From positions 1 through 53,737 of the forward strand of contig JAENRP010000294.1 in the NCBI GenBank assembly GCA_024741835.1: a stretch of 53,737 nucleotides of DNA. Direction: 5' to 3'. Origin of the DNA: Diplocarpon mali (lineage: Eukaryota; Ascomycota; Leotiomycetes; Helotiales; Drepanopezizaceae). The position numbers and the translations under genes are program-made. How positions within the stretch are numbered: the first letter of the stretch is position 1; each line of letters begins with the position of its first letter. The notes under the pieces were generated by a model. The model worked only from the letters and a program-made list of their open reading frames with translations. It did no database searches and was not told where the DNA came from. Shown here in pieces: positions 527 to 53,737 of this stretch.

Positions 527-549
527 ACTCTTAGGCCAGAACTATAAGT
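527..549 (+). repeat. Palindrome in G1 gag (site of 40375 in G2)
   Basis: Decayed arms ACTCTTAGGCC and ACTATAAGT. Confidence 0.82.
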
Positions 550-1517
550 AAAGGGAATTACTACTAGATTTCTCTTTACCTCCTTTATAACTTCTAAAGC
601 CTTTAAGTATTCTTAAACTAAGCTCTTAAGGTCTTTAGTATAAGAGGGAATAGGAGATTTTTCCTATTCTATAGCATTAATAGTTCTCTTATTAAGATCT
701 GATTTTAAAGCAAAGGCTAAGAACTCTTTAAATAAGGCGAAGGTTATAAGGTCTTATTTATCGATCTTAAAATTCTTAATAATCTTATTGCAAAGGCTAA
801 TAGGTAATTTAAATAAGAAAAGGCGGCCTCTTTTAACTTCGCTAAGTATTTTCTAATTGATTAAAGTATTCGACACTTAAGTAAAGGTCCGATAGTAGTT
901 TTTAAGTTCCTTAAGAGTGTAAGTAATAAGAATAAACTCCTTTAAAAAGGCCAGAGTATCGCAAATCTACTATCTATTAAATTTTTAAAATTCAACTTTA
1001 AGAGCTTTAATAAGTAGTTCCTAGGACTTGCGAAGCTTCTACTTAAGTAGAGATTTAATAATATCTTTGCTAGTTTAATTGCAGTAGTAGGGAAGTCGAT
1101 TGATTATCTTATTATATTTAATGCTAAAATTATAATAAGTCTCCTTATATTATTTAAGGAAATTAGTAATATTAGCTCTAGTGAAATAAGGAGCGCTAAG
1201 GGAACTAGGGAGAGGAAAATGATTAATAATAGCTTTAAAGGCGGCTATTATCGCTTTATTCGTTTCAATAGGAGAGGAGTTAGGTCGAATATAAGGCCTA
1301 AGGTATTCTAAGGAGTTTTTAGAATCCGAGTCAATCTTAAAGTAACTAAGGCAAGCTTGAAAAGATTTGGGCAAAGGGTTAGAAGGAGGTTTGAAATTAA
1401 TATTTTTAGTATTTTTAAATATTAATATTAAAAAAGCAGGTGCAGTTATTAAAGGGAAAGGTATTAAAGGAGAAGGCGAAGAACTTAAGTTATATAAAAT
1501 TGCATTTTTATATTCCT

Positions 1518-1540
1518 ACTTATAGGCTTAGCCTAAGAGT
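1518..1540 (+). repeat. Palindrome in G1 (site of 39366 in G2)
   Basis: ACTTATAGGCT / AGCCTAAGAGT arms. Confidence 0.88.
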
Positions 1541-2266
1541 GAAAATCCGGCTTTTATAAAAAGTTTATTTATACTTTATTAAGACTTCTTTAATAGGTAT
1601 AAAGTAATAAATAAAGGTATTATAATTACTAATAGTAAGAAAAGGTTTATTAAGTTAAAGACTAATTTCTATAATAAAGTTTCTAAGAAAGATTCATCTT
1701 AGCTTTTAGGACAATTCCTATTAGTTCTTAGAATAAAGGGGTCTTTAAAGATGATTTTAAGGCAGTTTTCAAAGTCCTATTAAGTAGAGGCGGCTAAAGT
1801 ATCCGATTTAGCTTTTTAAAAAAGCTAAGGAGACTCTTCCGATTAGAGCTTTCGTTTAGTATTATATAAATACCTAAAACTGCTTTTATTTAAAGTAGCT
1901 ATTATAGCTAATCAAACTTCTTTATATTAGAAAGGCTAGAAATCCGACAATCGTACTAATAGGCTAATAATTCAAGCTTATTAGATTAAAGGTAGGTAGG
2001 AGAGGCGGAATAGGGGCCGAAATAGGAAAATCTGAGGTTATTGATAGTAGAGAGTAGCAATCGACAGTTCCAAATAACTAAGTAATTGCAAGGTCGATAA
2101 TAAAGGAATAATAACTAACAGTTATAAATAACTGAATGATTATTATCTTAAAAGGGGTTTTCAAAGGGTTGATCTCTTATCTGCGAATTAAGAGAATTAA
2201 GAGGAGAAGTTGTATAAAGACGAAATCTCAAAGGAATCGTCCTTGCGTAAGTCACTAATATAAGAT

Positions 2267-2505
2267 AGAGGGGAGACAATATAAGAATAGGCCTAAGGGA
2301 AGACCTAAAAACAAGAGGGAGGAAGCACTACAAGCGGGCTCTCCGAAGATGAGAACTAGGACAATTTACTAGTTAGAGGTAGAATAGGTAATTAGTATTG
2401 CGCGCTATCTCTAAGTACAATAGTAGTCCTATATATACCCCTTTCTTAGTCCTTATCTGACCATATGACCTATGTCACAAGATCCTCTACTTCCAGGTCT
2501 CTATA
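2267..2505 (-). repeat. LTR of Gypsy G1 (5' LTR, minus strand)
   Basis: About 239 bp, related to LTRs at 35014-35252 (minus) and 38447-38685 (plus). Shared blocks are GAGACCTG at the 5' end, GTGACATA..TCATAT, a purine run around CCTAAGGGAAGACCTAAAAA, and GGGGAGACAA at the 3' end. The LTR start has decayed (TA instead of TG). The inner boundary is uncertain by about 15 bp. It abuts element J on its right, so G1 appears inserted in J; the matching target duplication is outside the window. Confidence 0.8.
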
Positions 2506-4500
2506 TTATTAGTACTATTTCGCAGTTAAAACCTTAGTAGTCATAAAGTACTTAAGGGAGCAGTGATTTGAGTAAATATCAACTCGCTCCTTAAGTGATA
2601 TAAGCTCTGGTCTCTATTTATAGCAGGATTCAATAATAGCAAAGAGTTCCTTATTATATATTTCCTAATTAGGTTTATAACCTAAGAGTATATGCGAATA
2701 GAAGCCGATAGGGTACTATTGCTTATCGAAGTATTGCTAAGAAAGTACTCTAGCGATAATGCTATCAGAAGCATTAGTTTCTAGCTTTATAAGTAAGTTG
2801 GGGTTAAAATAGTAAATCTATTAAATTAATAGTAATTACTTGCAAAGCTTTTTAAAAGCGATTTAGCACTCTTCTATCTAATTCTAAGGTACCGTCGGTC
2901 GGGTTAGAATAGAGAGGGGTTTGGCAATTAGCTTAAAGTTGCAAATGAATTATTAATAGAATCTGCAAAATCCTAAGTAGGACTTTACTTTAGTAATAGT
3001 TTTCAAGTACTTCTAATTGCGCAATAGTTCGACCTTTTCAAGGTCTAGTTCAATCTTAATTATTATTAGAATATATTTAAGATATTAAGTTTAAGTAATA
3101 TAAAACTCGTACTTCTTAATATCTACTTAAAGGCTAGCCTTTAAGAGTCGTTTTAGTACCTTTTCGATATAACCCTAGTACTCCTTAACGTTCTTAAAGT
3201 AAATCAAAATATCGTTTAAGTACACTATGTAAAAATCATTTAAGTAATTTAAAAGAATATCATTTATATACTGCTAGTAAGTACTAAGTCTATTATAAAG
3301 GCCAAATAGGAGAACCTTGCATTTATAAGATCCGTACTTTATTCGAAAGGTAGTATATTCCTTTAATTTAAAGTCCATTTGTATTCGATTGAAAGCGGCC
3401 CGAATATCCAGTTTTATAAAAATTTTAGCTTTAGATACTTGCCTTAAAAGCTTGTCTATCCTCGGAATCGGGTAAGCGTCTTTCCGAGTTAGTGCGTTTA
3501 GCTTCTGGTAGTCTATGCAAAATCGGAGGCTACCGTCGGCCTTCTTTACAAATAGCACTAGCGAAGCAAAGGGGCTAGTACTTATCTTAATAAAGCCTTT
3601 GTCTAAATTCTCAAATAAGTACTTCTTTATAACCTTAAGCTCCTTAGTAGATTGACGGTAAAGGGGCGAATAGGCATTAGGCAAGGGCCCTTTTAGCTAT
3701 ATCTTATAATTGTAGTACTAATAGGAAGGGAGGGTATCTGCATCCCTTTTTAAGAAGGCTTATCTTAGCGATTAGTACTATTTCAGGAGTTAATTATTAA
3801 TTAGCTTTTCGACATTAGGATTCTTAAGCTTATATCTTTCCTTTAGAATCCTATCTACTTTATAAATACTGGTTTAAAAGAACTTAGTCTCCTTACGCTT
3901 TATATTATAATAAAAGGCATTAGCACTGATTTTGCAAATAGGAACCGTAGCTTTAGGGCATTTGCGAATAGGGTCAGAATATAGTCGATTTGTATTAGAC
4001 TGTTTTCCTAAATCCGGCTTAGTTATAGGCAGGGGCGCTGGCCTAGTAATAGCAATAGGGATCTTACGCCTAGCTAGGACTACCAAATTGACGCTAGACT
4101 ATCTTCTATTAATCTATTAAGCTTTATCTATAGCTATTTCCTATTCTTTATAATTAATATTAGCTTAATAATTGGATCAGATCCGAAGTCCTTTAAAAGG
4201 AGGAAGACGAATGACGATTTCCTTTGCAAATTAGGGAAATAAGGGGTAATACAAAGGCCATACAAATCGGTTTTCCTTCGGATCAAGTTTAAGTTAGAAT
4301 CGGCGTATCCATTTGACTCTAATAATAGCATTGCGCTAGCTAAGGTCGAGAATAACCTAAGGGCAGTTATAAATACGCCTTCTATCAATTGTCAAGTGAA
4401 AGCGTATATAGTGCATAGCTTACGTGCGAATAGTATTTTAAAATCTATAGATAGGAATAAGGGCTAAAAGAGGAAGAATTTTAAAGCCAGTCGCTTTTAA
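2506..4500 (-). pseudogene. pol: Gypsy element J, degenerate pol (protease, RT, RNase H)
   Basis: Minus-strand Ty3/Gypsy polymerase region. The piece 3274-3684 is open for 136 codons and is a clear reverse transcriptase: VLFVKKADGSLRFCIDYQKL, then TRKDAYPIPRIDKLL, KLDIRAAFNRIQ and a VLLFGLYN block. Downstream the frame continues with a YLxDILIY active-site block (YLDD decayed to YLND). RNase H follows, with LxTNASDSIIARVLSQ near 2750-2790. Protease would lie between 4500 and 3700 but I could not find its active site. The element stops at 2505 where G1 begins, so integrase and the 3' LTR are missing from the window. The RT type suggests a chromovirus-like Gypsy, but the chromodomain region is not visible. 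Confidence 0.88.
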
Positions 4501-7365: not shown

Positions 7366-7843
7366 ACCTCTAACTCTCTCGAAAGAACTAGCAATAATAG
7401 TTCGACGATTTAGAGCTTTACTTTAAGAGCAAAGGCATCGAAATAGCGATTCAAAAGATACTTATTAAATACGCAAGAATAGCCCCTTATACTCCCTCTA
7501 CCGATTTATCTACTTCCACTTTAATAGCTAATGCAATTGCTAAGGATTTGCTAGATATATTAAATAAGCTTAGCCTAAGAGCTTTAGTAGATAATAACCG
7601 AGAATCCTAAAGGCAGATTTTAAATATAGAAAAGGAGAAGGAGTATAGGCTAGCCTTAGCCAAATGCAAGCTTAAGATTAATAAAGGTTTAAGCGATAAA
7701 GACCGAGATTTTATTCGAGTTTATAATAATGCGAAGATAAAATAGGATACTTTAAAGGTAAAATACTCTTAAATAACTGCCTTTAATACTTAGTATCTAC
7801 TATAGTAGATCACTTCATTTTAATATAGAAAAGATAAAGATAG
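7366..7843 (+). pseudogene. gag: Copia element D, gag part 1
   Basis: Plus-strand gag fragment homologous to the minus-strand gag of C at 22640-23090. The frame reads AKDLLDILNKLSLRALVDNN and LALAKCKLKINKGLSDKDRD with only RIP-type stops. It ends at the target duplication gatag (7839-7843), where B was inserted. It resumes at 26847 with gatagtaaggatatag, exactly as in uninterrupted C (minus strand near 22620-22640). D is therefore the oldest visible host of the nest. Confidence 0.85.
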
Positions 7844-8081
7844 TATAGCAATGAGGTTCTCTAATAGTGAACTTGATAGTAAACTAGAAGAGGGCACGAA
7901 GAAGTATGAGGTGCAAACGACGATGTTAGGTGTCTTAATTCATAAGAGCTCTTTAACTAGGAGCTATTTAAGGTAAGCGGGCTTTTTAGTAAAGCCGCTA
8001 AGTCATATGGTAAGTCATATGATATATTATATGTATAATATATTATATAATAGATCATATGATAAATATATAATAGGCATA
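7844..8081 (-). repeat. 3' LTR of B, larger fragment
   Basis: Matches 26600-26846 and, in inverse orientation, the solo LTR at 34587-34819. It starts TATAGCAATGAGG (decayed TGTAGCAA) and is cut at 8081 by A1. The last five bases, gcata (8077-8081), are A1's target duplication. The remaining nine bases of the LTR are at 15268-15276, where cttataata is the RIP-decayed form of cctgcaaca. Confidence 0.92.
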
Positions 8082-8253
8082 TGTTGCGCCATAAGGAGCC
8101 TCAGGCGCTGAGGCATCTAAGGACTGGCTTATGTAATATACCCCTGAAGTGGCCACGGAGCACTTCTATAAAGGGAGCTCAGATATACAATTAGAGTAGA
8201 ATTTTACAAGCTTCTGCCACTATTGAGAATCCACCTTTAAATATAGTACGATA
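8082..8253 (+). repeat. 5' LTR of A1
   Basis: Starts TGTTGCGCCATAAGGAGCC and contains the inverted repeat GCCTCA-GGCGC-TGAGGC at its beginning. A TATAAAGGGAGCTCAGATA promoter-like stretch lies near 8166-8185. It ends acgata (decayed cacgaca in the 3' LTR). Copies are at 15091-15262 and 27606-27776. Confidence 0.93.
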
Positions 8254-8265
8254 GTTATCAGCACT
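8254..8265 (+). other. Putative primer binding site of A1
   Basis: The bases GTTATCAGCAC follow the 5' LTR directly, both here and in A2 (GTTATTAGCAC, decayed). They resemble the half-tRNA type of Copia primer site (GGTTATGAGC) used by B and C but differ at the fourth base from the end. The priming tRNA is uncertain. Confidence 0.45.
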
Positions 8266-8389
8266 ATTCGCGACTCTTAAGAGCAAACGATTAAAAATCC
8301 ACTATATTTAAAGGCTTCTTAGAGAGGTTTCACTACTAATTTTCATCTATTCTCCCTCGCCTATACGCGTTATACGACCTAACTCGACG

Positions 8390-9590
8390 TTCTAACGCTC
8401 TTAGCTAATCAATAGAACTTATACTCCCTACCATCTTAGTCAATATAAGCGAATACTAGTAAAAAGAAGCTTAAGAGCTTAGCTCTAGTAGAGTTATACT
8501 CTAGGATAGGAAGTCATAGCGCATTTGGTACGCTAAGCTAGAGTTTCAGGCCGAATTTCTACGCCTCTAGAAGCATATAAAGAAGCCAAGATAGGTTAAT
8601 AACCCTAAACTGTATGCTATAGAGATAGGAAACCAAGCTTTACTTTATAAAAACGAAGCTCTATACCTGCTGGATTTAGAAATAGAACCGCTATAGCTTA
8701 AAAAAATTATAAAAGGATAAGACTAAAGAGTATTGCAAAGCTACTACGAGTTATACTAATAGTAGGAAGCTACCGATTAATAAACGCCAGCTCTACTACT
8801 ACCCGCAAAGATAATAGCTAAAGACGTAGAGCTAAAGTATAAAATGGCAGTAATATAATACAATCTTATAGTAGAAGCGTAGAAAAGGAATAGGAGCTCT
8901 TATACTTAGTTATACTATTAGATTACTAAGATAGTATACCTTACGTTGCTTTAAGCAGTATAATATAACTATAAGGAAGCGGGGAAACTATTAATTCAAT
9001 AGATTATAAAGCACTTGCGTAGAGAACTAGCCCCCTCTAAGGTTAGTATAATAGAGTCAATTCGGGAAGACTATAATAATAAGCTCTTTAAAATAAGGAG
9101 TAGCAAAGTAGAACCGAAGACCTAGCTTACTAGCTTTAGGAAGATCTACTAAAAAGCATAAATGTATAGAATCCCAAAGGTTTAAGGCTCTCTTACGATT
9201 ATAAAGTTTCTATAGTCGATTTACTGCTAAGCTCTTACCTAGTCTTAGCAGACCTAGGCAGAGCTTATTAGAGATAATAAGCTAGGCCTAGAGTATAGAA
9301 AAGATATAGTCTACTATATTAATTAATTCTTAAGCTTAATAAAGCGAAGCCTCGCAAGCTCCTTATCAAAGGCAACCCTTAGAGTATACGCCTCACTTAA
9401 AGGAGTAGGCGATTATACTAATCTAAGAGCATTAAGTAAAGGTAAGGCGAAGAAGACTCTAAAGGGAAGTATTAAAAAGTGCTCTTGCCCTTAAGTTAAA
9501 AATCACTTCTAGAACCTAAAGGAGTATAATAGGCTGAAATACGCCTTAACTAGCGCTAAGGAAGGTACGCTTTAAAACCTTCCCAGCTAT
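8390..9590 (+). pseudogene. gag: A1 gag, degenerate
   Basis: Plus-strand frame broken only by TAA/TAG. Recognisable stretches include LKYKMAVIQYNLIVEA and VYASLKGVGDYTNLRALSK. A degenerate zinc-knuckle-like block KCSCPxVKNHFxNLKEYNR sits at about 9477-9535 and reads KCPCPxVKNHF in A2. It would encode the capsid and nucleocapsid part of the Copia polyprotein, continuous with protease and integrase downstream. The start codon was not fixed. A2 (27900-29100) supplies a parallel copy with stops at partly different sites. Confidence 0.8.
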
Positions 9591-15276: not shown

Positions 15277-15454
15277 TACCCCTTTAGGAAGACCTTTAAA
15301 GGTACTCGCTAGTAATACATATGATATTATAACTTTTATTATAATCTATAGTTTCGTATGAAAAATCAACTTACAGATATGGGAAATAGAGTAGAGTTCG
15401 CTAGCGCGCTCTACTCTAGAGTAGGAAATCTACCTCTTAGTAAGTCAAAAATCA

Positions 15455-15477
15455 ACTCGCGGGCCTGGCCCAGGAGT
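15455..15477 (+). repeat. 23-bp palindrome in B 3' region
   Basis: Arms ACTCGCGGGCC and GGCCCAGGAGT around a central T. Member of the dispersed family described at 21147-21616. Confidence 0.9.
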
Positions 15478-15481
15478 AAAA

Positions 15482-15562
15482 AATCACCTCTTAATAGAAG
15501 TATAAAAAAAAAATCACCTTATAATAGAGGTGCAAAAAAAAATCACCCTTTAATTAAGGTGC
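15482..15562 (+). repeat. Three tandem 22-nt palindromic units separated by A-runs
   Basis: Units at 15482-15503, 15512-15533 and 15541-15562 share AATCACC at one end and RRGTGC or its decayed form at the other, so each is an inverted repeat (CACC..GGTG). Poly-A runs of 8-9 bases separate them. The same AATCACCCTTTAATT sequence occurs after the palindrome at 17465-17487. Confidence 0.8.
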
Positions 15563-17353
15563 AGAACCTTTATATTTAACAATTTGATAAAGGCGGCGTA
15601 GTTAGAGCTATTTAAGCTCTTGGTAAGGCCGTCGGTAGCGTTGTCTTTGGTATTTGTATACTAGAGGTCCAAATGGCCTTTTTAAAGCTCTTATCGAATA
15701 TAATAGAACTTGATATTAATATGCTTTATTCTCTAGTAGTATTCAGGGTTTTTAATAAGATAAAGGGCTCTTTAATTATCGCAGATCATCTCGACTTTAA
15801 TAGCATTATCGCTAGCGTAGCCTATTTCCTTAAGTACTTAGCGTATTTAAGAGGCCTCTTATGCGAATTTGCATATAGTAATATACTCTGCTTTTATAGA
15901 TGAGAGAGCGATAATAGTCTATCGCTTAGAAGAGGCGGTAATTATACTATTATTAAGGAAGAAGACGGCCTTAGAATAGGAGGCTTTAGTTCCTCTATCA
16001 CTTGCCTAGTTAGAATCGCAATAGCTATGCAATTTCTAAAGCTTTAGGTCAGTTCTTTTACTTCTAAAGGTAGTATAATAGAATCGCGTTCCTTGCAAGT
16101 ATTATAAAACTCATTTTAAAGCTACTATATATTATAGCGAAGGGTTAGTAAGGAATTTGCTAAGAATAGAGCAGTAGTATAGTATATCTTAATGTGTATA
16201 GTGCGCAAGGTACTATAAAGAACTATAGATCTCCTAGTATAGCTTCACTTCCTATAGAGTGGCTTAGCCTTCAAATTTGACTATATAAACTTTATAGTTA
16301 CTAGCAAAAGGCGTTAGTACGCTCTTGCAATTAGTTATATAAAAACGTTTAAGAACCTTATTAATGTAGGCATTTTAATAAAGTAAGATCGTCTTATTTT
16401 ATCGATCTCTAACTATATGTACTCTTAAGAAGTAGTTAGCCGGTTTGCTACCTATAATCTTAAAGAGGTTGCGAAGATCTTTCTTAAACTTATTATATAT
16501 ATCACCCTTCTTTGCTACTATAAGGAAGTCGTCGATATAAGTGATAATAAGAATCTAAGAGGTGCGGTTAATATATATACAATTGTTAGTATCGAGAGGT
16601 TGAAAATCGAGCTTTTATAGCTCGGACTGTAGCTTTTCTTACTATAGTCGTAGAGATTACTTTAAGCTATATAAGGCCTTAAGAAGCTTAAGACAGTAGT
16701 CTTAAGGTAAAAGAACGACCTTATCTTAAGTGTATTTAAGAGGTAACTTAATATAGATATTAGAGTTAGCTTTTAAATTAAGGAAAGCTATTTTAATATC
16801 GAACTGATCTAGCTTAAAGTCGTATAGCGCTGCGAGCGTAATCGCAATCTTTTAAACCGCAGATTTGCATACTTTAGTAAAAGTCTAATTATAATCTTGA
16901 CCTTATTATTATATATAGCCTTATATAACGAATCTGACCTTCTATTAGGAGATTTCCCTATTTTAGTCCCTTTTTGTTTTAAAGACGAGCCTTGATCTAA
17001 GTACTCTATTATCTTTAGAGAGTTTTAAGCGTTTTACTACTACTTATATATTCTTATAAGCGAGGGAATTGTATTTAAAGTTGATCGCAGATCGCTATTT
17101 GTTAGCGTTAGCGTAAGAAAGGGCTTGTTCGACTGTTTTCGGGTTATTTAGGTATGGAGAGTCGAGTAAGGCTATGTGAAAGGCGCTTAAATAGGCTTCC
17201 TTATTATTAGAGTTGTTAGCTTTGAATCTAAGAGCATAAGTTAAGCGTATAGCTCTCTTTTCGGAAGGCTGAGGGTAAGCCTTGTTCTTTAAACTAGGAG
17301 GTCTTCCTCTCTTTCTTGGAGTTGGAAGCTCAGCTTCTCTTAAATCAGAATTG

Positions 17354-17376
17354 ACTCGCGGTCCCGGCCTAGGAGT
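17354..17376 (+). repeat. 23-bp palindrome, B linker copy 1
   Basis: Read on the coding (minus) strand it encodes TPRPGPRV within DSTPRPGPRVNSD, in frame with the AT-hook segment. Confidence 0.92.
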
Positions 17377-17398: not shown

Positions 17399-17421
17399 AC
17401 TTGCGGTCCCGGCCTAGGAGT
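17399..17421 (+). repeat. 23-bp palindrome, B linker copy 2
   Basis: 45 nt (15 codons) from copy 1. On the minus strand it encodes TPRPGPQV after DF. Confidence 0.92.
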
Positions 17422-17464: not shown

Positions 17465-17487
17465 ACTCGCGGGCCCGGCCTAGGAGT
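17465..17487 (+). repeat. 23-bp palindrome, B linker copy 3
   Basis: 66 nt (22 codons) from copy 2. On the minus strand it encodes TPRPGPRV in GDFTPRPGPRVTS. Confidence 0.92.
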
Positions 17488-17885: not shown

Positions 17886-17908
17886 ACTCGTAAGGTAGGA
17901 TTAAGAGT
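17886..17908 (+). repeat. Palindrome in C 3' non-coding region
   Basis: Decayed copy: ACTCGTAAGG arm and ATTAAGAGT arm. Confidence 0.75.
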
Positions 17909-17950: not shown

Positions 17951-17973
17951 ACTCGCGGTCTAGGCCTAAGAGT
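17951..17973 (+). repeat. Palindrome in C 3' non-coding region
   Basis: ACTCGCGGTCTAG and GCCTAAGAGT arms. It lies 65 nt from the previous copy, not a multiple of three. Confidence 0.85.
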
Positions 17974-18012: not shown

Positions 18013-18035
18013 ACTCGCAGGGCAGGCCTAGGAGT
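18013..18035 (+). repeat. Palindrome in C 3' non-coding region
   Basis: ACTCGCAGGGC and AGGCCTAGGAGT arms, 62 nt from the previous copy. Confidence 0.85.
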
Positions 18036-21146: not shown

Positions 21147-21616
21147 AATTATAAGCCTAGCTTAAGAGTCGTTTTTAATAAAACCGCAAGATCTACTTAT
21201 AGTCTTAGCTTAAGAGTCGATTTCCTAGAAATAGCAAGATCCACTCGCGGTCCTAGCTTAAGAGTCGTCTTTAACGATTTTGCGAATTTCACTCGCAGTC
21301 TTAGCTTAAGAGTTATTTCTACAAATTTCACTTATAATCCTAGCTTAAGAGTTATTATTAGCAAATCTATAGAATCCACTTATAGTCTTAGCTTAAGAGT
21401 TATTTCTATTAAATTTACTTATAATCCTAGCTTAAGAGTTATCTTTAAAAATACCTTATAATTTACTTATAGTCTTAGCTTAAGAGTCATTTTTGCGAAT
21501 TTCACTTGCGATCCTAGCTTAAGAGTCTATCTATTTTCCTTATCCTTACTTAATTATATTAAGGTAAAGAGTGCACTTTCCTTAAAGGAATCTATTTATA
21601 AGTCTAGCCTAAGAGT
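21147..21616 (-). repeat. Array of ten 23-bp palindromes in C (CRISPR-like spacing, coding)
   Basis: Copies start at 21147, 21195, 21243, 21291, 21330, 21378, 21417, 21465, 21504 and 21594. Spacing is 48, 48, 48, 39, 48, 39, 48, 39 and 90 nt, all multiples of three. Copies 4-9 form an 87-nt higher-order unit (48+39). On the coding strand each palindrome encodes TLKLGPRV or a decayed form. Eight-residue spacers (DLAISRKS, DLAVLLKT) or five-residue ones (EIRKN-like) follow. The last copy leads directly into the pre-integrase frame (ENGKTLNC). The 16-nt spacers resemble each other, pointing to tandem duplication rather than capture of foreign spacers. Confidence 0.93.
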
Positions 21617-21879: not shown

Positions 21880-23090
21880 TAACCTTAATAGAGCGCCTTT
21901 TTATTTTAATAAGCGGGCCTTTAAATAGGTAGGGTTTATTAGTTATATATATTATACAACTAGTATTACTATATCAATCGAATTCAAGGATCTTATAAAG
22001 ATCGGCTTTTAAAACGTAAGCATCTTTATTATAATTATCATTTGAATTATTAAAAGTGGATTTAAGTTTAAATAACCTACTATTATTATTAAAGGTATTT
22101 GCTAAAGTTCTAATTAAATAGCCTTTTCCTTTGCCTTTCCTTAATAATTACAGCCTTCGGTAGGATAAGGGCAGTTTACTTCTTAACTTCTGCTTCAATT
22201 GCTTCTTAATATTAAAGCTAGTAACTATATTAATTAATTGCCTTTTAACTTTATAATTAGTAATATTATAAGCACTATTATAGAAGTAGCATCCTTAATA
22301 AGCTTAAGGGCTTATCCCGTGCTCCTTCCTCTTCTTAGACTTATTGTTACCCTATAACGCAGCATTTGCCGATTTAAAGCGTCCTTCGAGGTCTTGCTTA
22401 ATAGTTCGAAGGAGGTCGATCTTCTTATAGATCTTAAGGTTAGGTTAGACGAGAAGAGATTGTTTTGCAATAGCGAACTTAAAAGGGAGGTTATTAAGTA
22501 GGAAATTAAAAAGCTAAGTTTCCTTAAAAGTTATAGCTATCCTAGGATCTGCGGCTTTTACTCTCTTTTTCACTTTATATAGTATAGATTAAGTAGAGTC
22601 TATATTTATATCTATATCCTTACTATCTTTATCTTTTCTATATTAAAATGAAGTGATCTACTATAGTAGATGCTAAGTATTAAAGGCAGTTATCTAAGAG
22701 TATTTTGCCTTTAAAGTATCCTATCTTATCTTTGCATTATTATAAACTCAAATAAAATCTCAGTCTTTATCGCTTAAACCTCTATTAATCTTAAGCTTGC
22801 ATTTAGCTAAGGCTAGCCTATACTCCTTCTCCTTTTCTATATTTAAAATCTGCCTTTAGGATTCTTAATTATTATCTACTAAAGCTCTTAGGCTAAGCTT
22901 ATTTAGTATATTTAGCAAATCCTTAATAGTTGTATTAGCTATTAAAGTAGAAGTAGATAAATCGGTAGAGGGAGTATAAAGGGCTATTCTTGCGTATTTA
23001 ATAAGTGTTTTTTAAATCGCTATTTCGATGCCTTTGCTCTTAAAGTAAAGCTTTAAATCGTCGAACTATTATTGCCAGTTCTTTTAAAAG
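21880..23090 (-). pseudogene. gag: C gag and protease region
   Basis: Minus-strand copy of D gag (7366-7843 plus 26853-27605), uninterrupted, which proves how D was split. It includes a degenerate CCHC zinc knuckle near 22260-22300 (D reads CYFYNSTYNITNYK, from CxxCxxxxHxxxxC). Downstream lies a basic region matching LSYRRLQLLRKGKGKGYL in D. All stops are RIP-type. Confidence 0.85.
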
Positions 23091-23179
23091 AGTTAGAGGT
23101 CTTTAGGCCTAGTGTTTCGATCGGAATCGGAAGCTATTACTGTTTTAAATAGAATTGCATTAAAAATCAAATAAATTAA

Positions 23180-25067: not shown

Positions 25068-25090
25068 ACTCCTAGGCCTAGCCTGCGAGT
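25068..25090 (+). repeat. Palindrome in B pre-integrase, copy 1
   Basis: On the minus strand it encodes TRRLGLGV, followed by SSSTSYFLLKLRNRW in the same frame. Confidence 0.9.
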
Positions 25091-25121: not shown

Positions 25122-25144
25122 AGTCCTAGGCCCGGCTTACAAGT
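25122..25144 (+). repeat. Palindrome in B pre-integrase, copy 2
   Basis: 54 nt (18 codons) from copy 1. On the minus strand it encodes TCKPGLGL. Both copies are accompanied by the short sequence LGPIS/LGPIL (CCTAGGGCCAAT). Confidence 0.88.
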
Positions 25145-26586: not shown

Positions 26587-26599
26587 GGGGCTTATAACC
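26587..26599 (-). other. Primer binding site of B
   Basis: Minus strand reads GGTTATAAGCCCC next to the 5' LTR, the initiator-tRNA(Met) half-site with one RIP-type change. Confidence 0.8.
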
Positions 26600-26846: not shown

Positions 26847-26851
26847 GATAG

Positions 26852-35520: not shown

Positions 35521-35543
35521 ACCTATAGGCCGGGCCCAGGAGT
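35521..35543 (+). repeat. Palindrome in G3 3' UTR
   Basis: ACCTATAGGCC / GGCCCAGGAGT type. Same site as 53702-53724 in G2. Confidence 0.88.
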
Positions 35544-35848: not shown

Positions 35849-35934
35849 CCTTAAGAGAATTATTAGTAATAGAGGAAGGGGAGGCGGGAGATTCTATAAA
35901 CACTACTTCCTTAGCTTTGCCCTTTGCCAGATCA

Positions 35935-35957
35935 AGTTGCAGGCCGGGCTTAAGAGT
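35935..35957 (+). repeat. Palindrome in G3 frame (site 4)
   Basis: Decayed copy, site shared with 53277-53299. Confidence 0.8.
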
Positions 35958-36756
35958 TATATTAAGTATCTTTACATAAGGTTTCTTAATGCTATACTTC
36001 TCGAATAGAATCGTCTTATCGATTATATTATCAGCCTCGATATTATCATTAGAGCCTCTTATCTTAGTCTACGACTTATCTCTATATAGTTGCAGCTCTA
36101 GCTATTAAACTAGCTTTTAGGTATTGATAAAATCTTTAAAAAGTTCTTATTTATACTTCTTCAAATATGCTATCAGCTGAGTTATATCTTTTGCGAATAA
36201 ATCCTTTATAGTTATTACTACTAATAAGTCGCTTTAAGGTCTCTTTCCTATAAGAGCCTCCGATAGGGGGCCACCTTTTGTCATACTAAGGGTTATACGA
36301 AACTTAGCAGATAATTCACCTACGATATTCCATCTTATAAGTTAGGGTCGCTTTATATTAATAAAGTTAATAATAAAATCCTTTAGGTCGGTGCTATTCT
36401 TAAGTGCTCCATTTCCAACTACCTTAGTATAGTTATTGCTAATTATTAAAAAACCGCCTTTGCCAGGTTCCTGTTTAGACTTAAGGTCAACGAATGTGTC
36501 TTATCTTATAAATACCGAAAATGGGACGGTCTTATTAGAAACATATTCCTCTAAGGGCGTTCTTTATTTAATGCTTAGTTCCTTTTATTAACTAGCGCTT
36601 CGTACTAGGTTTATTAAGACCTATTAAGCATTTTTAGGCCTAGGTAGTATAAGGATTAATAATTCGTACGACTTTTCCTACACTGCAAATTGTCTAGTAG
36701 ACTGCTTGGCTGCTGGAATTATATAGTAATCGATAGTCCTATTATTAGGCATAATA

Positions 36757-36779
36757 ACCCGCGAGCCAGGCCTAGGAGT
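36757..36779 (+). repeat. Palindrome in G3 frame (site 3)
   Basis: ACCCGCGAGCC / GGCCTAGGAGT arms, flanked by TA..TCAA. Site shared with 52455-52477. Confidence 0.9.
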
Positions 36780-37986
36780 CAATCTGACGAATCTTATATT
36801 AGTATTAATTTTAATAGAAACTACTTTCGTATAGTAGTTAATCCCTATAAACTATACCAGCTTAGGGTACGTTACTAGCTTATATAAAGAATTATAATAA
36901 GTTAGTAAAGCACTTAAATATAATCTATAGTACATTCTCAGCGTTTATTATATTAGACTATAAGTTATATTATAAAGAAATGCAGATAAAGGTACTAGTT
37001 TCTTATTAGATACTTGAAAATAATATCTATATATTTCTAGTTCTTCTTATGCTAACGCTAAAAATGAAGTCTTTACGCGAGAACTATAACTATATATACG
37101 TATAGCACTTAGGAAAGCGCAGCTAAACAATTTAAGCATATTTAAAAACCCTTTGCTACAGAGTGATATTAGATTATCGCTAGCTAGTATAGCATTATAT
37201 CAGGCAGGAGTCTAAGCGATATTATAGAATAATTTCAAAGCTTTAAGCTCTACCTTAAACTTAGCGAAACCTAATAATATATCTTTCTTAACCTAGCTTG
37301 CTATTCTATTACCGATAGCCACAATTGCATAATTCCCTAAGTATAGTAAAAATAGCTTTAGGTTAAGGGTAATGCAAAATTTATAAATATTAGACGACAT
37401 ATCTTCATTATTAAGGCCTATTATTGCCAGCCTATAGTACTACGCGTATTATCATTTATAAAGGGTATAGAATTTATCAAAATTAAAGTCCTTAAACATT
37501 CCTATTATAAATTTAGAAAGTCTTATTTTCATTTCTAGTATTACTATAATCTTAAACCTATTGCTATACTATAGTATTATCTTAATATTAAAGGGAACTT
37601 GATAGTATTCTATAGAGATAATAGTTATACTATCTTCTGACTTTTCTTTAAGAATATAGTAGTTACTATTAAATTTCTTATAATCGATAAAGAACTATAT
37701 AATATTATCTATAAAGAATTCGTCTTGCTATAACTTTATAATCTGTTTAACAGCCCTTGCTATTCCCTCTTATACTAATAAAACTTTTCCCTAACCTTCT
37801 TTCTTTAAATGTTTCATTATTAACTTATAGAATTTTAGAACGAATTTTTACAAGTCCTTAAGGAAGGATTATATAATATTAGTAATATCTTTCTTATTAT
37901 TATTAAAAATCTCTAGCACATTAGAGATAGTATTATTCTCTTTATCTGATATTTTATTATCTAAGTCTATATTGTCATATATATTA

Positions 37987-38009
37987 ACCCGCGGGCTAGG
38001 CTCGCGAGT
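37987..38009 (+). repeat. Palindrome in G3 frame (site 2)
   Basis: ACCCGCGGGCT / GGCTCGCGAGT arms. Site shared with 51225-51247. Confidence 0.9.
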
Positions 38010-38172
38010 CAATTTCTTTGCCATTAGTATTCGGGGTATTTAAGGCATTTCTAAGAATAGCAATTCAAACTTATCTAAGTCTAATAAATAAGGGTTATAA
38101 TAGTTAGCAATTTATATTCTCAGTATTATAGGCACCTTATGCTTAAGGACCTCCTCCTTACATAGTACTTCT

Positions 38173-38195
38173 ACCTATAGGCCAGGCCTACGAGT
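38173..38195 (+). repeat. Palindrome in G3 frame (site 1)
   Basis: ACCTATAGGCC / GGCCTACGAGT arms. Site shared with 51039-51061. Confidence 0.9.
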
Positions 38196-38446
38196 CAAAT
38201 CTTCCTTGTTAGTCTATTCTACCGGGGGTAATAGCAGCTTTAGAGCGGCGGATACGACAAATTCCTATCTCTTTGACTCATTGTTAAAGAAGTTCATTAT
38301 ATACTCAGCTAAGTAAATCATCTTTTCTTTTATAATAAGCAGTCTGTACTATGATTATTAAAAGCCGAGGGTATTTAAAACAGTTTGGTTAAAAAGTGCG
38401 AAATTGTTATACTATAAAGGATTATCTTTTATAGTTTAAATAGTAG

Positions 38447-39365: not shown

Positions 39366-39388
39366 ACTCCTAGGCCTAGCCTATAAGT
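39366..39388 (+). repeat. Palindrome in G2 leader or N-terminal gag
   Basis: ACTCCTAGGCC / AGCCTATAAGT arms. Same site as 1518-1540 in G1. Confidence 0.9.
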
Positions 39389-40374: not shown

Positions 40375-40397
40375 ACTTATAGGCCCGACCTAGGAGT
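40375..40397 (+). repeat. Palindrome in G2 gag
   Basis: In frame, encodes TYRPDLGV. Confidence 0.92.
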
Positions 40398-42290: not shown

Positions 42291-42313
42291 ACTTACAGTC
42301 CTAGACTAGGAGT
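42291..42313 (+). repeat. Palindrome in G2 pol, copy 1
   Basis: Encodes TYSPRLGV in the protease-RT linker. Confidence 0.9.
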
Positions 42314-42452: not shown

Positions 42453-42475
42453 ACTTATAAGCCGGACCTGCGAGT
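42453..42475 (+). repeat. Palindrome in G2 pol, copy 2
   Basis: Encodes TYKPDLRV, 54 codons after copy 1. Confidence 0.9.
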
Positions 42476-44417: not shown

Positions 44418-44440
44418 AACTTGCGAGCCTAGCCTACGAG
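44418..44440 (+). repeat. Palindrome in RNase H-integrase linker
   Basis: ACTTGCGAGCC / AGCCTACGAGT arms. It appears to be read in a different codon phase (LASLAYES) from the other copies, or an indel occurred nearby. Confidence 0.88.
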
Positions 44441-45853
44441 TCAAATAAGAGAATTTTATCACCTAACTACTTAAGTGACTTTAAAAAAATCGCAAAGTTT
44501 TTAATTACGCTTAAACAACTAAAGACAATTGCTCTTAAGGATTTTTAGAAATTCAAAGCTAAAGCTCTAATTTATCTAATATAAGGAAGACGATTATTTA
44601 AAAGGAGCGATAACTTATTCCTTATATAACTCTACTTAAATAATAAAAAACTAAAGGCTAAAGCTATCTAGGATATTTATAAGGAAACTGGCTACTAAGG
44701 AGCTAAGTCTACTTACTATTAACTCTTAAGAAAATTCTTTTAAAAAGGCTCTTTTAAGGATTGCAAAGCTTTTATAAAGAGTTGCATCTCCTATTAGAAA
44801 TGAAAACCTAATTATAAGGAAAATCCTTTATTCCTAACCTAGCTATTAAGCCTTTTTTATAAAGTCAGCCTTAATATTATATAAGTACTAACTATTAAGA
44901 ATAGGATAATATATTTTATTCTAATAAAAGAAGACCTATTAGGATGGCCTAAAGGATAACCTTTAAAATCTACTAACTTTAAATCTATTGCAAAGTTCCT
45001 TTAAGAAGATATAGTCTATTACTATAGACTTTTTAATAGATTAACTATTAATAGAGGCCTTAAAAACAAAGGAGTAGTTAAAGCTTTCTTGTGAAAATAT
45101 AGCATCAAATGGGTTCAAATCTTAGCGTATAACTTGAAAGCTAATAGAGTAGTAGAATAAGGATACTATAATATTCTTAATAGTCTATCTAAAGTTACTT
45201 ATAAAGGATTTAAGAATTAGATAAAACACTTTTATAAAATACTCTTTGCTTATCAAATGATAATCTATAAACCGACTAGAGTTATACTATTCTTCCTTAT
45301 CTATAGTAAAGAGGTATAGCTCCCTCTTAAATCCCAATAGCCTATTTAGAGATTATTCGACTATAGTCAAATTCGGAACCGTTCTAATTTACTTATAATA
45401 AGATGCTAATAACTTAAGCTTTAAGATATAGATATAGAGGAAATCATTCTATAAAAGAAACGATATTAGGAAAAAGCTAAAAAAGCATAGGCTGCTTTTA
45501 AAGTACTTAAAACGCATCCTATTTAAAAAGATAATCTTATCTTAATCTATAATATTATAAGAAGTATTAATATATTAGTAGATACTAAACTTGACTATTA
45601 ATAGCTTAGTCTATTTAAGGTTAAATCTGAGTAGAAAGAAAAGGGATACTATTCTCTTTAGGAACTTAATAGAGTCGATATTAAGAGAACCTTCGCAGCC
45701 AATTGACTAAAGCGCTTTTATTAATGTGACTAGACCTTATTCCCTTTAGAAGATAAATTAGAAATTGATACAACTTCTGAATCCTTTATAGGAACCGACG
45801 GCGATATAAGCAATTTTAAACCCTTAAATAAAGACTAAGATTTTTCCAATTTG

Positions 45854-45876
45854 ACCTATAAGCTAGTCCTGCGAGT
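45854..45876 (+). repeat. Palindrome at the C-terminus of G2 pol
   Basis: In frame, encodes TYKLVLRV. Confidence 0.88.
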
Positions 45877-47116: not shown

Positions 47117-47139
47117 ACTTATAGTCTTAGACTAAGAGT
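47117..47139 (+). repeat. Palindrome in ORF3, site 1
   Basis: Encodes TYSLRLRV. Outer bases TTTG..TTAAAA extend the symmetry. Confidence 0.88.
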
Positions 47140-48502: not shown

Positions 48503-48525
48503 ACTCGCAGTCCTAGCCCGCGAGT
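48503..48525 (+). repeat. Palindrome in ORF3, site 2
   Basis: ACTCGCAGTCC / AGCCCGCGAGT arms; 462 codons after site 1. Confidence 0.9.
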
Positions 48526-49387: not shown

Positions 49388-49410
49388 ACTCGCGAGCCCA
49401 GCCCGCGAGT
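49388..49410 (+). repeat. Palindrome in ORF3, site 3
   Basis: ACTCGCGAGCC / AGCCCGCGAGT arms, nearly perfect; 295 codons after site 2. Confidence 0.92.
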
Positions 49411-50150: not shown

Positions 50151-51038
50151 ATAGCACCATTAAGCTCAAGCAAGAGAGCCACACTTAAGAAGAATATATC
50201 AGTTGTAGCTTTAGGTAGCAAACCCTTAAATACTACTAATAATAAACTAATATTAGAGGGTAACTTTTCATAGGATAGAAAAGCTCTAAGATCATTAGAA
50301 GATGTAGTAAGTACCTATAGAACATTAGGTAAAATAAAATAGCAAGTATTCCTAAACTCATCTATAGAAGTATTAAACTATAGAATTTCTACTATAGAAG
50401 AAGGATTTTTAAGCTTTGATGATTTTCTCGAGAATAAGCTTAAGACAAAAGGGATCGATCGTGAAAAATTTCTATAGGAATATCAGGGGTATACTAATTC
50501 CATAGATTTATTTTAGAAAAATCGAAATAAGAAGAATAAGTATATGAAAAGATTATTACAGTTTATAAGTAGCACTTATAGTACACTTTTCCAGACCTAC
50601 TTTATAACCGATATTACTGCTAACAATGCCCTATAAAGGCTTGGCAAAATCTTTAAAATATACCAACTTATAGTAAAGGCTATATAGGTATTAAATCATT
50701 TCACCATTTAAGAAGGTATAAAAAAGCTGTAAGGAAATAGTATTAGAAGTAGAAAATTTATTAGGTTCTTAAGCACTATTGTACACTCTACTATTTAAAC
50801 TATAAAAGATAAACCTTTATAGTATAATAATTTTGCACTTCTTAACCAAACTATTCTAAACACACTTAGCCTTTAATAGTCGCAATATAGTCTACTTATT
50901 ATAAAAGAAAAGATGACTTATCTCGCTAAGTATACTATAAATTACTTCGATAATAAGTTAAAGAGATAGGAGTTTATTATTCCTATCACTTTAAAAATGC
51001 TACTACCCCTAGTAGGAATAACTAACGAAAAGAATTTA

Positions 51039-51061
51039 ACTTATAGGCCCGGCCTATAAGT
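51039..51061 (+). repeat. Palindrome in ORF4, site 1 (perfect)
   Basis: Arms ACTTATAGGCC and GGCCTATAAGT are exact reverse complements around one central C. Encodes TYRPGLxV. Confidence 0.95.
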
Positions 51062-51224
51062 GGAATCAGCATGTAAGGAGAATGTCCCTAAGCCAGAGGT
51101 GCCTATAATACTAGGAACTTAAGCAGCTGACCTGCCTAACTACTATTCCTCTGACTTAGACGAATTTAAGTCACTATCCCTAGAAATACCTTAAATACCC
51201 TAAATACTAGTAGCAAAGAAAATG

Positions 51225-51247
51225 ACTCGCAGGCCTGGCCTATAGGT
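51225..51247 (+). repeat. Palindrome in ORF4, site 2
   Basis: Encodes TRRPGLxV in KKMTRRPGLxVNIYN. Confidence 0.93.
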
Positions 51248-52454
51248 TAATATATATAATATTATAAACTTAGAAGATGAATTGTCTAATAAAGAAATAG
51301 GCACTATTACTAATATGCTAGAAATTTTTAATAATACTAAGAAGGATACTGCCGATATTATACAATCTTTTCCTAATAACCTATAAAAATTTGTTCTCAA
51401 ATTCTATAAGTTAATAATAAAGCGTTTAAGAAAAGAAGGTTAAGGAAAAGTCTTATTAGCATAAGAAGGGACGATAAGAGCCGTTAAGCAGATTATAAAA
51501 CTGCTATAAGACGAATTTTCTATAGATAATATTATATAGTTCTTTATTAAGCATAAGAAATTGAAGGGTGACTTCTATATTCTTAAGGAGAAATCCGAAG
51601 TTAATACGAATATTATCTCTATAGAATATTATCAAATCCCCTTTAATATAAAGATAATACTATAGTATAGCAATAGTTTTAAGATAGTAGTAATACTAGA
51701 AATAAAGATAAGACTTGCAAAGTTTATAATAAGAATGTTTAAGGACTTCAATTTTAAAAAGTTCTACGCCCTTTATAAACGCTAATATGCGCAGTACTAT
51801 AGATTAGCAATAATAGGCCTTACTAATAAAGATATATCATCTAATATCTATAAATTTTGCACTGCTCTTAACCTAACCTTGTTTTTATTATATTTAGGAA
51901 ATTATGCAATTATGGCCACCGGCAATAGAATAGTAAGCTAAGTTAAAAAGGATATATCGTTAAGCTTCTCTAAGTTTAGAGTAGCACCTAAAGCCCTTAA
52001 ATTGTTCTATAATATCGCATAGACCCCTACTTAGTATAATGCTATACTAACTATTGACAACTTTATATCATTCTATAGTAAAGGCTTTTTAAATATGCCT
52101 AAGTTGTTTAGCTGCGCCTTTTTAGGCGCTATGCGCATATATAGTCATAGTAATTATAGAAAGAATTCATTTTTAATATTAGTATAAGAAGAACTAGAAA
52201 TATACTAATACCACTTCCGGACCTTAGATAAGAAGCCAAACCCTCCTTCTACCTACCTTTATAATATAACTTATAGCTTAATATAATAGATACTAAGGAT
52301 ATATTATAGATTATACTTAAGTGCTTTGCTAACTTAATATAAGTCTTTATATAAACTAGTAATATATCTTAAGCTTGCATAGTTTATTAAAATTGACTAC
52401 TACTTAAGAGTTATTACTACTAAGATTAATACTAATATAAGATTTGTAAGATTG

Positions 52455-52477
52455 ACTCCTAGGCCTAGCTCGCGGGT
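52455..52477 (+). repeat. Palindrome in ORF4, site 3
   Basis: Encodes TPRPSSRV in VRLTPRPSSRVNPP. Flanks TTG..CAA extend the symmetry. Confidence 0.93.
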
Positions 52478-53276
52478 CAATCCACCTGATAATAGAACTA
52501 TTGACTACTACGTGATTTTAGTAGCTAAACAATCGACTAGAGAATTCGCTATTTAGGAAAAATCCTATAAATTATCAAATCTTATACCCTAATGCCCTAA
52601 GAATACTTAATGGATCTTACTAAATCTGGCTTAAAATGCAGTATAATAGAAAGAATTAAACACTAAAGAGAAGGCACTTCTAAAGGAGTATATCTCTAAT
52701 AAGATAACTCTATTCTCTATATTTATTAAATAAGGCACATTTATTAATATAGAATCTGCTAGAGAACTAGGAAAAGGTAGCTTTCTTACTATTAGCAATA
52801 ATTATATAGAAGTTATTAGCAATAACTCATTAGAAAATAGCATAGACTTAAAAGATTTTCTTATTAATTCTATTAGTATAAAGAGACCTAGCATTATAAG
52901 ATGGAGTATTATTAGAGAATCGTTAGCTAAATTTCATATAACGCTTAGTATAATAAAAGGAGGCCTACTGTTAAAGGCACTTATAGGGAAATGGCTATAG
53001 AACGATCTATTAGTAGTAATAATAGTAAAGGAATTATTCTCTAAAGATATAACTCAGTTGATAATATATCTAAAGAAGTATAAATAGGAACTTTTTAATA
53101 ATTTCACCTATACTTAAAAGCTGATTCAATAGTTGGAGCTACAATTGTATAAGGATAAGTCCTAGACTAAGACGAAAGGCATTAATAATAATATTAAGGC
53201 TAATAATATAATTGATAAGACGATCCTTTTTAAAAAGTACAGCATTAAGAAACCTTGTGCTAAACCCTCTGATACG

Positions 53277-53299
53277 ACTCCTAGGCCTAGCCTGCAACT
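53277..53299 (+). repeat. Palindrome in ORF4, site 4
   Basis: Encodes TPRPSLQL; the right arm is decayed (GCAACT). Confidence 0.85.
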
Positions 53300-53624
53300 T
53301 ATATTAACTAAAGGCAAAGAAAAGGAAGTATTATTTATTGAATTGCCCGCCTCATCCCCTTCCGCAGTAGAAGACTCTTTAGAGGATGATAATAATAATA
53401 AAGAGGATAATAATAATAACGCTATAATATAAGTCTCCCTCCCTATTAGTAGAAGCTATCAAACTATATTAGCATCTTTATAAAATACTAAAGCTTTTAC
53501 AATACTAAGACCGGACTCTTCCAATACTAATAGTAAACCATTAAGAAGAAGTAGGCGCTTTATAAAGAGAGTATTATCTAGTAATGGTTCTCCCTATCCC
53601 CCAAAGAGAACTAAGGAAAATTGA

Positions 53625-53737
53625 CATCTAGGTTAGTACTATTTTTAATTGTTTTTACAACTCTATAGCTTATTTATTTATTTTGCTAGTTTCGTTTTCT
53701 AACTCCTAGGCCCGGTCTATAAGTGAAAAGTATATAA
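53625..53737 (+). other. G2 3' untranslated region start
   Basis: Matches the inverse of 35500-35618 of G3 base for base in long stretches. The G2 3' LTR is expected outside the window. Confidence 0.8.
53702..53724 (+). repeat. Palindrome in G2 3' UTR
   Basis: ACTCCTAGGCC / GGTCTATAAGT arms. Same site as 35521-35543. The distance to the previous copy (425 nt) is not a multiple of three, as expected past the stop codon. Confidence 0.9.

What the first reader, a model, noticed from the sequence alone, without database searches (positions are those of the whole stretch)
527..53724. Dispersed 23-bp palindrome family inserted in frame in retrotransposon proteins, like Rickettsia palindromic elements
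At least 40 copies of a palindrome with 11-bp arms (ACTCGCRGGCC or ACTCCTAGGCC type, with matching right arms) lie in B, C and G. In ORF3 (3 copies), ORF4 (4), G2 gag (1), the G2 protease-RT linker (2) and C-terminus (1), B pre-integrase (2), the B integrase-RT linker (3) and the C array, the palindrome begins on codon position 1. It gives an octapeptide such as TPRPGPRV, TYRPGLxV or TLKLGPRV. It can be read in both orientations without stops before RIP. Several copies extend to TGACTC..GAGTCA, which is 27 bp (nine codons) and would insert without a frameshift. This looks like a non-autonomous coding palindrome in fungal retroelements; I know of no named fungal family of this kind.
Basis: partly seen in the sequence, partly recalled or inferred. 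Interest (0 to 1): 0.88.

Follow-up and report, generated by a model that had tools for sequence, protein, structure and literature searches.

The report
Tiny palindrome inside fungal retrotransposon genes
A 23-letter DNA palindrome is scattered many hundreds of times through the dead retrotransposons of a fungal genome, mostly in step with their protein code between protein domains; it looks like a minute selfish DNA of a kind known mainly from bacteria and organelles.

Summary
The palindrome is real and far beyond chance: 28-39 window copies by stringency; 565 full-core places genome-wide, reversed-pattern control 0. Its least mutated form is ACTCSCGGGCCNGGCCCGSGAGT. It is conserved as DNA: across 23 representative copies the arms are kept, third codon positions included, while the central base is free. 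Phase 1 is usual (22 of 27 site clusters), not universal. The 27-bp TGACTC..GAGTCA form is not supported. New: one base outside the palindrome both flanks resemble RAWTY, and within a site the two pentamers match as direct repeats 30 bp apart more than shuffled pairs do (p about 0.01), as a 25-bp insert with a 5-bp target duplication, ten codons net, would give. All 39 later-fetched motif loci fell in known site clusters, so host elements carried most copies. Of 120 listed relatives the two top-ranked carry TREPGARV/TREPGPRV; 118 do not. Best reading: a selfish coding palindrome working like Rickettsia palindromic elements or mitochondrial GC clusters, here in nuclear LTR retrotransposons. No DNA-level empty site was found; movement is inferred.

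The parts
96..118 (+). palindrome copy (degenerate), same site as L068:1204
527..549 (+). palindrome copy, same site as 40375
1518..1540 (-). palindrome copy, same site as 39366; lowest-stop frames are not phase 0
15455..15477 (-). palindrome copy, little RIPed; on the other strand TGATTTT stands on both sides
17354..17376 (-). palindrome copy, linker array, octapeptide TPRPGPRV in a 119-aa open piece
17399..17421 (-). palindrome copy, same array, 45 bp away
17465..17487 (-). palindrome copy, same array; same site as L024:7767
17886..17908 (.). weak palindrome copy next to 17951
17951..17973 (-). palindrome copy; lowest-stop frame of this copy is phase 2
18013..18035 (-). palindrome copy
21195..21217 (.). 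weak array copy
21243..21265 (-). array copy
21291..21313 (-). array copy
21330..21487 (.). four weaker array copies (21330, 21378, 21417, 21465)
21504..21526 (-). array copy
21594..21616 (-). array copy
25068..25090 (+). palindrome copy in an open piece (minus strand) just before WLYNISASKHVSN (read as a Copia protease by recall); reverse orientation to the coding strand compared with 17354
25122..25144 (+). second copy, 54 bp away
35521..35543 (-). palindrome copy, same site as 53702 by its place in inverted pair I7
35935..35957 (-). palindrome copy, same site as 53277
36757..36779 (-). palindrome copy, same site as 52455
37987..38009 (-). palindrome copy, same site as 51225
38173..38195 (+). 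palindrome copy, same site as 51039
39366..39388 (+). palindrome copy
40375..40397 (-). palindrome copy
42291..42313 (-). weak palindrome copy
42453..42475 (+). palindrome copy
44419..44441 (.). palindrome copy in a clear reading frame, phase 2 (not phase 0)
45854..45876 (+). weak palindrome copy
47117..47139 (.). weak palindrome copy
48503..48525 (.). palindrome copy, lowest-stop frame is phase 1
49388..49410 (.). palindrome copy of the GAG variant; its plus strand reads TREPSPRV, that of its sister L018:708 TREPGPRV (as in relative P0005), though the lowest-stop frame of this site is on the other strand
51039..51061 (.). perfect palindrome as it now stands
51225..51247 (-). palindrome copy
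52455..52477 (+). palindrome copy
53277..53299 (+). palindrome copy
53702..53724 (+). palindrome copy

Best explanation
A non-autonomous, selfish palindromic mini-element of nuclear LTR retrotransposons. The unit is about 25 bp, N-ACTCSCGGGCCNGGCCCGSGAGT-N before RIP. It inserts at pentamers like RAWTY and leaves a 5-bp target duplication, so an insertion adds 30 bp = ten codons and, being open in all six frames, does not break the polyprotein it lands in. It persists mainly in linkers between polyprotein domains. After perhaps one to three dozen insertions it multiplied passively with its host elements, locally by tandem duplication (45-bp units, 1-4 per linker in one family), and was then RIP-mutated with them. 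Shown: a dispersed DNA-level family; the complete palindrome wherever an intact arm was met in the sampled repeats; both orientations; several element families; mostly in frame; RAWTY-like flanks; presence/absence of the octapeptide among relatives. Inferred: mobility as such, the target duplication (weak statistics), and the trans-acting enzyme (unknown; an integrase or transposase making a 5-bp stagger would fit).
For: Far above controls. In the loci held, 118 of 118 intact arms have a partner arm with at most 2 mismatches that RIP does not explain. Across 23 representative copies every arm position, third codon positions included, is identical or RIP-type in 19-23 of 23 (16 at position 5, the known asymmetry), and the central base is free (copies were found by similarity, which inflates the level, and at least two, L024:7767 and window 17465, are one site). 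Both orientations relative to a clear coding frame (L024:6300 CG-first, L024:7767 CC-first). Flanks: RAWTY score 4.00 left and 3.75 right of 5 against 2.41 and 2.32 at other offsets; pyrimidine at -2 0.99, purine at +2 1.00; 19 clusters. Direct repeat best at a period of exactly 30 of those scanned, p 0.008 against shuffled pairing, 0.007, 0.013 with 17 clusters, inverted match p 0.63; an earlier test allowing slips gave 0 of 1000 shuffles as high. Five host-like stretches held no full palindrome: three 5-kb controls and two probed places with a lone arm in 48-49% GC DNA. Relatives: TREPGPRV in P0005 (protease-RT linker), TREPGARV in P0004 (RNase H-integrase linker), not in the other 118 listed. 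P0005's copy lies at another point of the linker than the L026 copies. P0004's neighbouring residues (DL before, ES after) can be coded by RAWTY on both sides (worked by hand).
Against: No nucleotide-level empty site: within families every comparable copy was occupied apart from whole array units (29 of 30 loci, the thirtieth, L037, has unrelated sequence there). The 39 motif-bearing loci fetched later all fell into clusters already known (by single linkage), so independent insertions are few (17-27 clusters by method) and the duplication test rests on 17-19 of them; the pattern was noticed before it was tested, and it is not significant when only purine/pyrimidine class is compared (p 0.26). 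Abutting direct repeats without the one-base offset show nothing (p 0.49) and the flanks do not extend the palindrome (p 0.85). No enzyme was identified. My first octapeptide patterns found none in any relative; the pattern that finds P0004 and P0005 was widened after seeing P0004, although TREPGPRV had been read in this genome before. DNA behind P0004 and P0005 was not seen. Weak look-alikes in P0007 (TRDPGPPV) and P0008 (SRDPGSPL) could mean an old linker peptide. P0005 has no full RAWTY match on either side (by hand). Several listed relatives are partial and lack one or other linker.
Confidence: 0.5

Rival explanations
1. A linker peptide (TxxPGxxV), perhaps a polyprotein processing or spacer motif, arose in one Gypsy lineage and spread by recombination between elements and by tandem duplication; the DNA palindrome is a by-product.
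For: Copies with known context lie at domain junctions: gag, protease-RT and RNase H-integrase of the Gypsy element in L026, before the protease and in a later linker of a Copia-like element (Copia by recalled motifs); weakly similar peptides stand in the protease-RT region of relatives P0004, P0007, P0008; 45-bp arrays vary from 1 to 4 units.
Against: Third codon positions are as fixed as the others across sites while the centre is free; both orientations occur, and other phases within clear frames (44419, 48503); 118 of 120 listed relatives lack it.
Confidence: 0.2
2. A DNA or RNA signal kept by selection (binding site of a dimeric protein, RNA dimerisation or packaging hairpin) rather than a mobile element.
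For: Conserved half-sites around a free central base are the pattern of dimer recognition; the strand folds better than most shuffles (-12.7, -12.1, -9.7 kcal/mol; z -2.3, -3.2, -2.9).
Against: Positions differ between element families and lie in coding linkers; 118 of 120 listed relatives lack the octapeptide.
Confidence: 0.15
3. Minimal internal-deletion derivative (TIR-only MITE) of a DNA transposon whose terminal repeats are the 11-bp arms.
For: Terminal-repeat-like arms and a possible 5-bp target duplication at a palindromic target.
Against: No lone arm among 118 arms from the repeat loci, so no longer element with these ends was met in the sample; no transposase was seen, but none was searched for.
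Confidence: 0.12
4. Chance or a RIP artefact: RIP spares GGCC and so makes such islands stand out.
For: RIP is strong here (TA/AT 1.50, (CA+TG)/(AC+GT) 0.60 against 0.64-0.79 and 1.17-1.37 in five host-like loci), and GGCC lacks RIP's preferred CA/TG steps.
Against: Controls of 0 to 1 hits.
Confidence: 0.01

Closest known systems
Rickettsia and Wolbachia palindromic elements (RPE/WPE; also Methanocaldococcus), protein-coding palindromic repeats
   Same: Palindromic, dispersed, in frame inside pre-existing ORFs, typically at non-structured positions (PMC2996958 and PMC3767692, passages seen).
   Different: RPEs are 100-150 bp and lie in bacterial genes; here 23-25 bp, nuclear, in LTR retrotransposons. 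No sequence relation tested or claimed.
Palindromic GC clusters of yeast mitochondrial DNA (GC42 and others)
   Same: Short GC-rich palindromes in fungal DNA flanked by short direct repeats like a target duplication; mechanism unsettled (PMC4478555, passages seen).
   Different: Mitochondrial and mostly intergenic, direct repeats AG or ACT; here nuclear, largely coding, RAWTY-like.
[quoted passage not shown]
   Same: Palindromic DNA inside tandem coding repeats, in bacteria and some eukaryotic microbes (PMC2996958, passages seen).
   Different: 75-bp (25-aa) amphipathic repeats; here an octapeptide in unrelated linkers.
Bacterial REP elements and RAYT transposases
   Same: 20-40 bp palindromes in high copy, some inside genes (PMC3733652, abstract start and passages seen).
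   Different: GTAG or CGTC tag at one end; not seen in the flanks printed. Enzyme not searched here.
Short palindromic repeats of Volvox carteri mitochondrial and plastid DNA
   Same: Dispersed short palindromes thought selfish; similar ones also occur in its nuclear DNA, proposed to be organelle-derived (PMC2670323, passages seen).
   Different: Intergenic and intronic, not coding.
Conserved hairpin site of fungal GalEa (Copia) elements
   Same: A palindrome in fungal Copia retrotransposons (PMC5445492, passages seen).
   [quoted passage not shown] other sequence.

Membership tests
RPE/WPE protein-coding palindromic repeats | palindromic repeat dispersed in one genome | tested here: met
RPE/WPE protein-coding palindromic repeats | inserted in frame in unrelated ORFs | tested here: inconclusive
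   in-frame position in 22 of 27 site clusters; insertion itself shown only as presence/absence of the peptide among relatives
RPE/WPE protein-coding palindromic repeats | length 100-150 bp | tested here: not met
   23-bp palindrome; flanks of different sites unlike beyond RAWTY
RPE/WPE protein-coding palindromic repeats | in bacterial host genes | tested here: not met
   fungal retroelements; pattern with 0 matches in the bacterial and archaeal genome contigs
Mitochondrial GC clusters | GC-rich short palindrome flanked by short direct repeats | tested here: inconclusive
   GC-rich palindrome yes; direct repeats at p about 0.01
Mitochondrial GC clusters | mitochondrial location | tested here: not met
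   LTR-element repeats on many contigs, the largest 560 kb
MITE / TIR transposon derivative | terminal inverted repeats with constant target duplication | tested here: inconclusive
   5-bp duplication suggested
MITE / TIR transposon derivative | related full-length element or longer copies with the same ends | tested here: inconclusive
   no lone arm among 118 in the sampled repeats; only about 0.6% of the genome was read (sum by hand)
REP/RAYT | GTAG or CGTC tag at one end and an HUH transposase | tested here: inconclusive
   no constant tag in the 33 flank pairs; enzyme not searched
PARCEL | 25-residue amphipathic tandem repeat (DUF285) | tested here: not met
   Pfam scans of 20 open pieces list no such family

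The most novel reading that the evidence does not exclude
A nuclear transposable unit of only 25 bp: a bare palindrome, moved in trans by a retroelement integrase or another enzyme with a 5-bp stagger to RAWTY targets, which parasitises LTR retrotransposons of several fungi by adding exactly ten codons to their polyprotein linkers in any frame.
Probability: 0.3. Interest if true: 0.88.

Novelty: new variant of a known kind. Interest (0 to 1): 0.7.

Why it matters
Coding palindromes are on record from Rickettsia, Wolbachia, one archaeon and, as tandem PARCELs, from bacteria and some eukaryotic microbes, and GC clusters from organelle DNA; how they move is unsettled. A nuclear case with a countable target signature (RAWTY, 30 bp, ten codons), sitting in elements that themselves encode integrases, would make the question of movement testable and would show a way by which new peptides enter proteins without breaking them.

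Tried and rejected
The 27-bp TGACTC..GAGTCA unit: rejected. Abutting target duplication and palindromic extension of the flanks: no signal. Lone arms as ends of a longer transposon: none among 118 in the sampled repeats; two lone arms met later (L061, L063) are in host-like DNA, in line with the 8+10 chance matches of the reversed control. Empty sites within families by DNA and translated comparison: none. Window 8241/27764 against 15250 as an occupied/empty pair: the alignment breaks down around the motif, not usable. Pfam on 20 open pieces: only the RT piece 3277-3696 passed its cut-off; other labels (Copia, Gypsy, protease, integrase) rest on recalled motifs and on alignment with relatives that carry Pfam RT, RNase H and integrase domains. 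Protein search with L026:2838-3188 (117 aa): 3 hits, all Diplocarpon coronariae hypothetical proteins, 84-89% identical, from which the host species is inferred; with an 80-aa integrase piece: 15 candidates, none at E<=1e-8. First octapeptide patterns in the relatives: no hit in 123 proteins; a very loose one also hit an RT stretch (RLRxAGLQV) in many. Viral contigs: 1 match, not followed. Literature for the octapeptides or arms as strings: 7 papers, none about such an element by title and abstract start. Host-gene occurrence was sampled, not excluded.
Full report
What was checked. The window is contig C294 of a 49.4 Mb genome in 676 contigs. A piece of a neighbouring element finds only hypothetical proteins of the apple-blotch fungus Diplocarpon coronariae, 84-89% identical; a published genome of that species is 51.2-51.5 Mb with 20.7% Copia and 5.7% Ty3 elements (PMC11527701, passages seen), so the genome is that species or a near one (inference). 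No stop-to-stop frame of 150 codons exists in the window, and dinucleotides show heavy RIP (TA/AT 1.50, (CA+TG)/(AC+GT) 0.60, against 0.64-0.79 and 1.17-1.37 in five host-like loci).

The palindrome. Loose scoring finds 39 copies in the window, stricter scoring 33 or 28, against 0-1 per Markov window. Genome-wide the core ACTNNNRGGCCNGGCCYNNNAGT occurs at 565 places, control 0; within 3 mismatches of the common form there are 2599 forward and 2625 reverse hits, control 0 and 1 (one palindromic place can count on both strands). The contig C2 (522,631 bp) is missing from the arm places, which are listed in contig order as far as C24. The 22 copies without C-to-T or G-to-A change in the core have CCC in one arm and CGC in the other in 21 cases, so orientation can be told. 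The pattern ACTCSYRGGCCNGGCCYRSGAGT has no match in the bacterial and archaeal genome contigs and one in viral contigs.

DNA, not peptide. In 23 representative copies each arm position is identical or RIP-type in 19-23 of 23 (16 at position 5), third codon positions as well as others, while the central base is 7 C, 6 G, 5 A, 5 T. The copies were found by similarity, which inflates the level but not the contrast with the centre; at least two of the 23 (L024:7767, window 17465) are one site. Copies occur in both orientations relative to a clear frame. Of 118 intact arms in the repeat loci held then, all have a partner arm with at most 2 mismatches that RIP does not explain: the complete palindrome is the unit.

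Sites and phase. With registered flank similarity 137 distinct contexts form 27 site clusters; phase 0 is the lowest-stop frame in 22, and in 8 of the 10 with a clear margin (L024:7812 and window 17399 are one site, so 27 overcounts). Merging anything with similar flanks gives 19 clusters, or 17 after adding 40 loci. Of those 40, 39 carry the motif (the other coordinate was mistyped) and no cluster consists of new loci alone. So a few dozen events at most, multiplied by their host elements, account for the copies sampled; the new loci came from listed places on 21 contigs, not from a random sample. In one Gypsy family copies sit in gag, between protease and RT, and between RNase H and integrase; in 29 of 30 loci of the last linker there are one to four units, mostly 45 bp (15 codons) apart, and the thirtieth has unrelated sequence there. 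Clear exceptions to phase 0 are 44419/L025:8999 and 48503. Before RIP the sequence is open in all six frames (8 variants), so stops alone do not explain the preference; I have no proven explanation for it.

Flanks. Instead, one base away from the palindrome both flanks resemble RAWTY: mean score 4.00 and 3.75 of 5 against 2.41 and 2.32 at other offsets (19 clusters). RAWTY is its own reverse complement, so this could be a longer degenerate palindrome or a target duplication. Within-site comparison favours duplication: direct identity at a period of exactly 30 bp is the best of the diagonals scanned (0.50 against 0.42 for shuffled pairing, p 0.008; p 0.007; p 0.013 with 17 clusters), inverted identity is not raised (p 0.63). 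A first test that allowed slips gave 37 against a shuffle mean of 14.7, none of 1000 as high (with the 23 representatives). Against it: the pattern was noticed before it was tested; it is not significant by purine/pyrimidine class (p 0.26), which the consensus itself fixes; abutting repeats without the offset show nothing (p 0.49) and the flanks do not extend the palindrome (p 0.85). Thirty base pairs are ten codons, which would keep any frame; 23, 25 or 35 would not.

Relatives. A 97-position RT query returned 250 proteins, 120 of them listed, 60-75% identical; several are partial. My first patterns found no octapeptide. Reading the linkers by eye showed one in P0004, and a widened pattern then found two, the first and second by rank: TREPGARV in P0004 between RNase H and integrase, TREPGPRV in P0005 between protease and RT; the other 118 have none, and patterns for the other two frames hit nothing. 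TREPGPRV had been read before on the plus strand of L018:708 in this genome, though the lowest-stop frame there is on the other strand. Linkers vary in length, so these are presence/absence, not residue-exact empty sites. In P0005 the octapeptide lies C-terminal of SPFVRELKKGL, in L026 N-terminal of the matching SSFFRDLKRDL, so the same linker is occupied at different points. P0007 (TRDPGPPV) and P0008 (SRDPGSPL) carry weak look-alikes, which keeps an old peptide origin possible. No DNA of these relatives was available.

Host genes. Of eight places probed (five from the arm list, three from the full-pattern list) six lie in sequence with relatives among the fetched loci; two of the five arm places (L061, L063) are host-like, 48-49% GC, and hold a lone arm, as chance predicts. 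Three 5-kb host-like regions hold none. This is a sample, not an exclusion.

Reading. The evidence fits a selfish palindromic mini-element that works like the protein-coding palindromes of Rickettsia and like yeast mitochondrial GC clusters, which also carry short flanking direct repeats (PMC4478555, passages seen), but belongs to neither by size, sequence or compartment. Movement is inferred. Eight literature searches listed no report of such a family in fungal nuclear DNA; only listings, abstract starts and the passages named here were seen, and the library lacks most subscription journals.

Noticed in passing
window 30278-30577 and 30639-30938: A direct repeat of 300 nt, 90% identical, spaced 361 bp; nature not examined.
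   Followed up: no
window 37030-38446 with 50788-52204, and 35881-37006 with 52228-53353: Stretches of one element family in inverted orientation, 79% and 73% alike, with palindrome copies at matching sites.
   Followed up: partly
window 7366-8638, 22621-23100, 26592-28160: Another element family, 88-94% alike between copies, with no palindrome hit in these stretches: elements free of the motif lie in the same contig.
   Followed up: partly
window 15352-15576 and L016, L020: Next to the palindrome lie three degenerate units of about 29 bp beginning with a long A run (AAAAAAAATCACC..), whose A-run length differs between copies and shifts the frame.
   Followed up: no
L026, L030-L059: In the Gypsy frames several stop codons recur at the same codon in most copies (for example TAA for CAA in the stretch aligned), as RIP at CpA in each copy would give.
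   Followed up: no
P0001 (Diplocarpon coronariae hypothetical protein PZA11_007750): A predicted host protein looks like a fusion of gag N-terminal and protease-RT linker sequence of this Gypsy family, so annotated genes there include retroelement debris.
   Followed up: no
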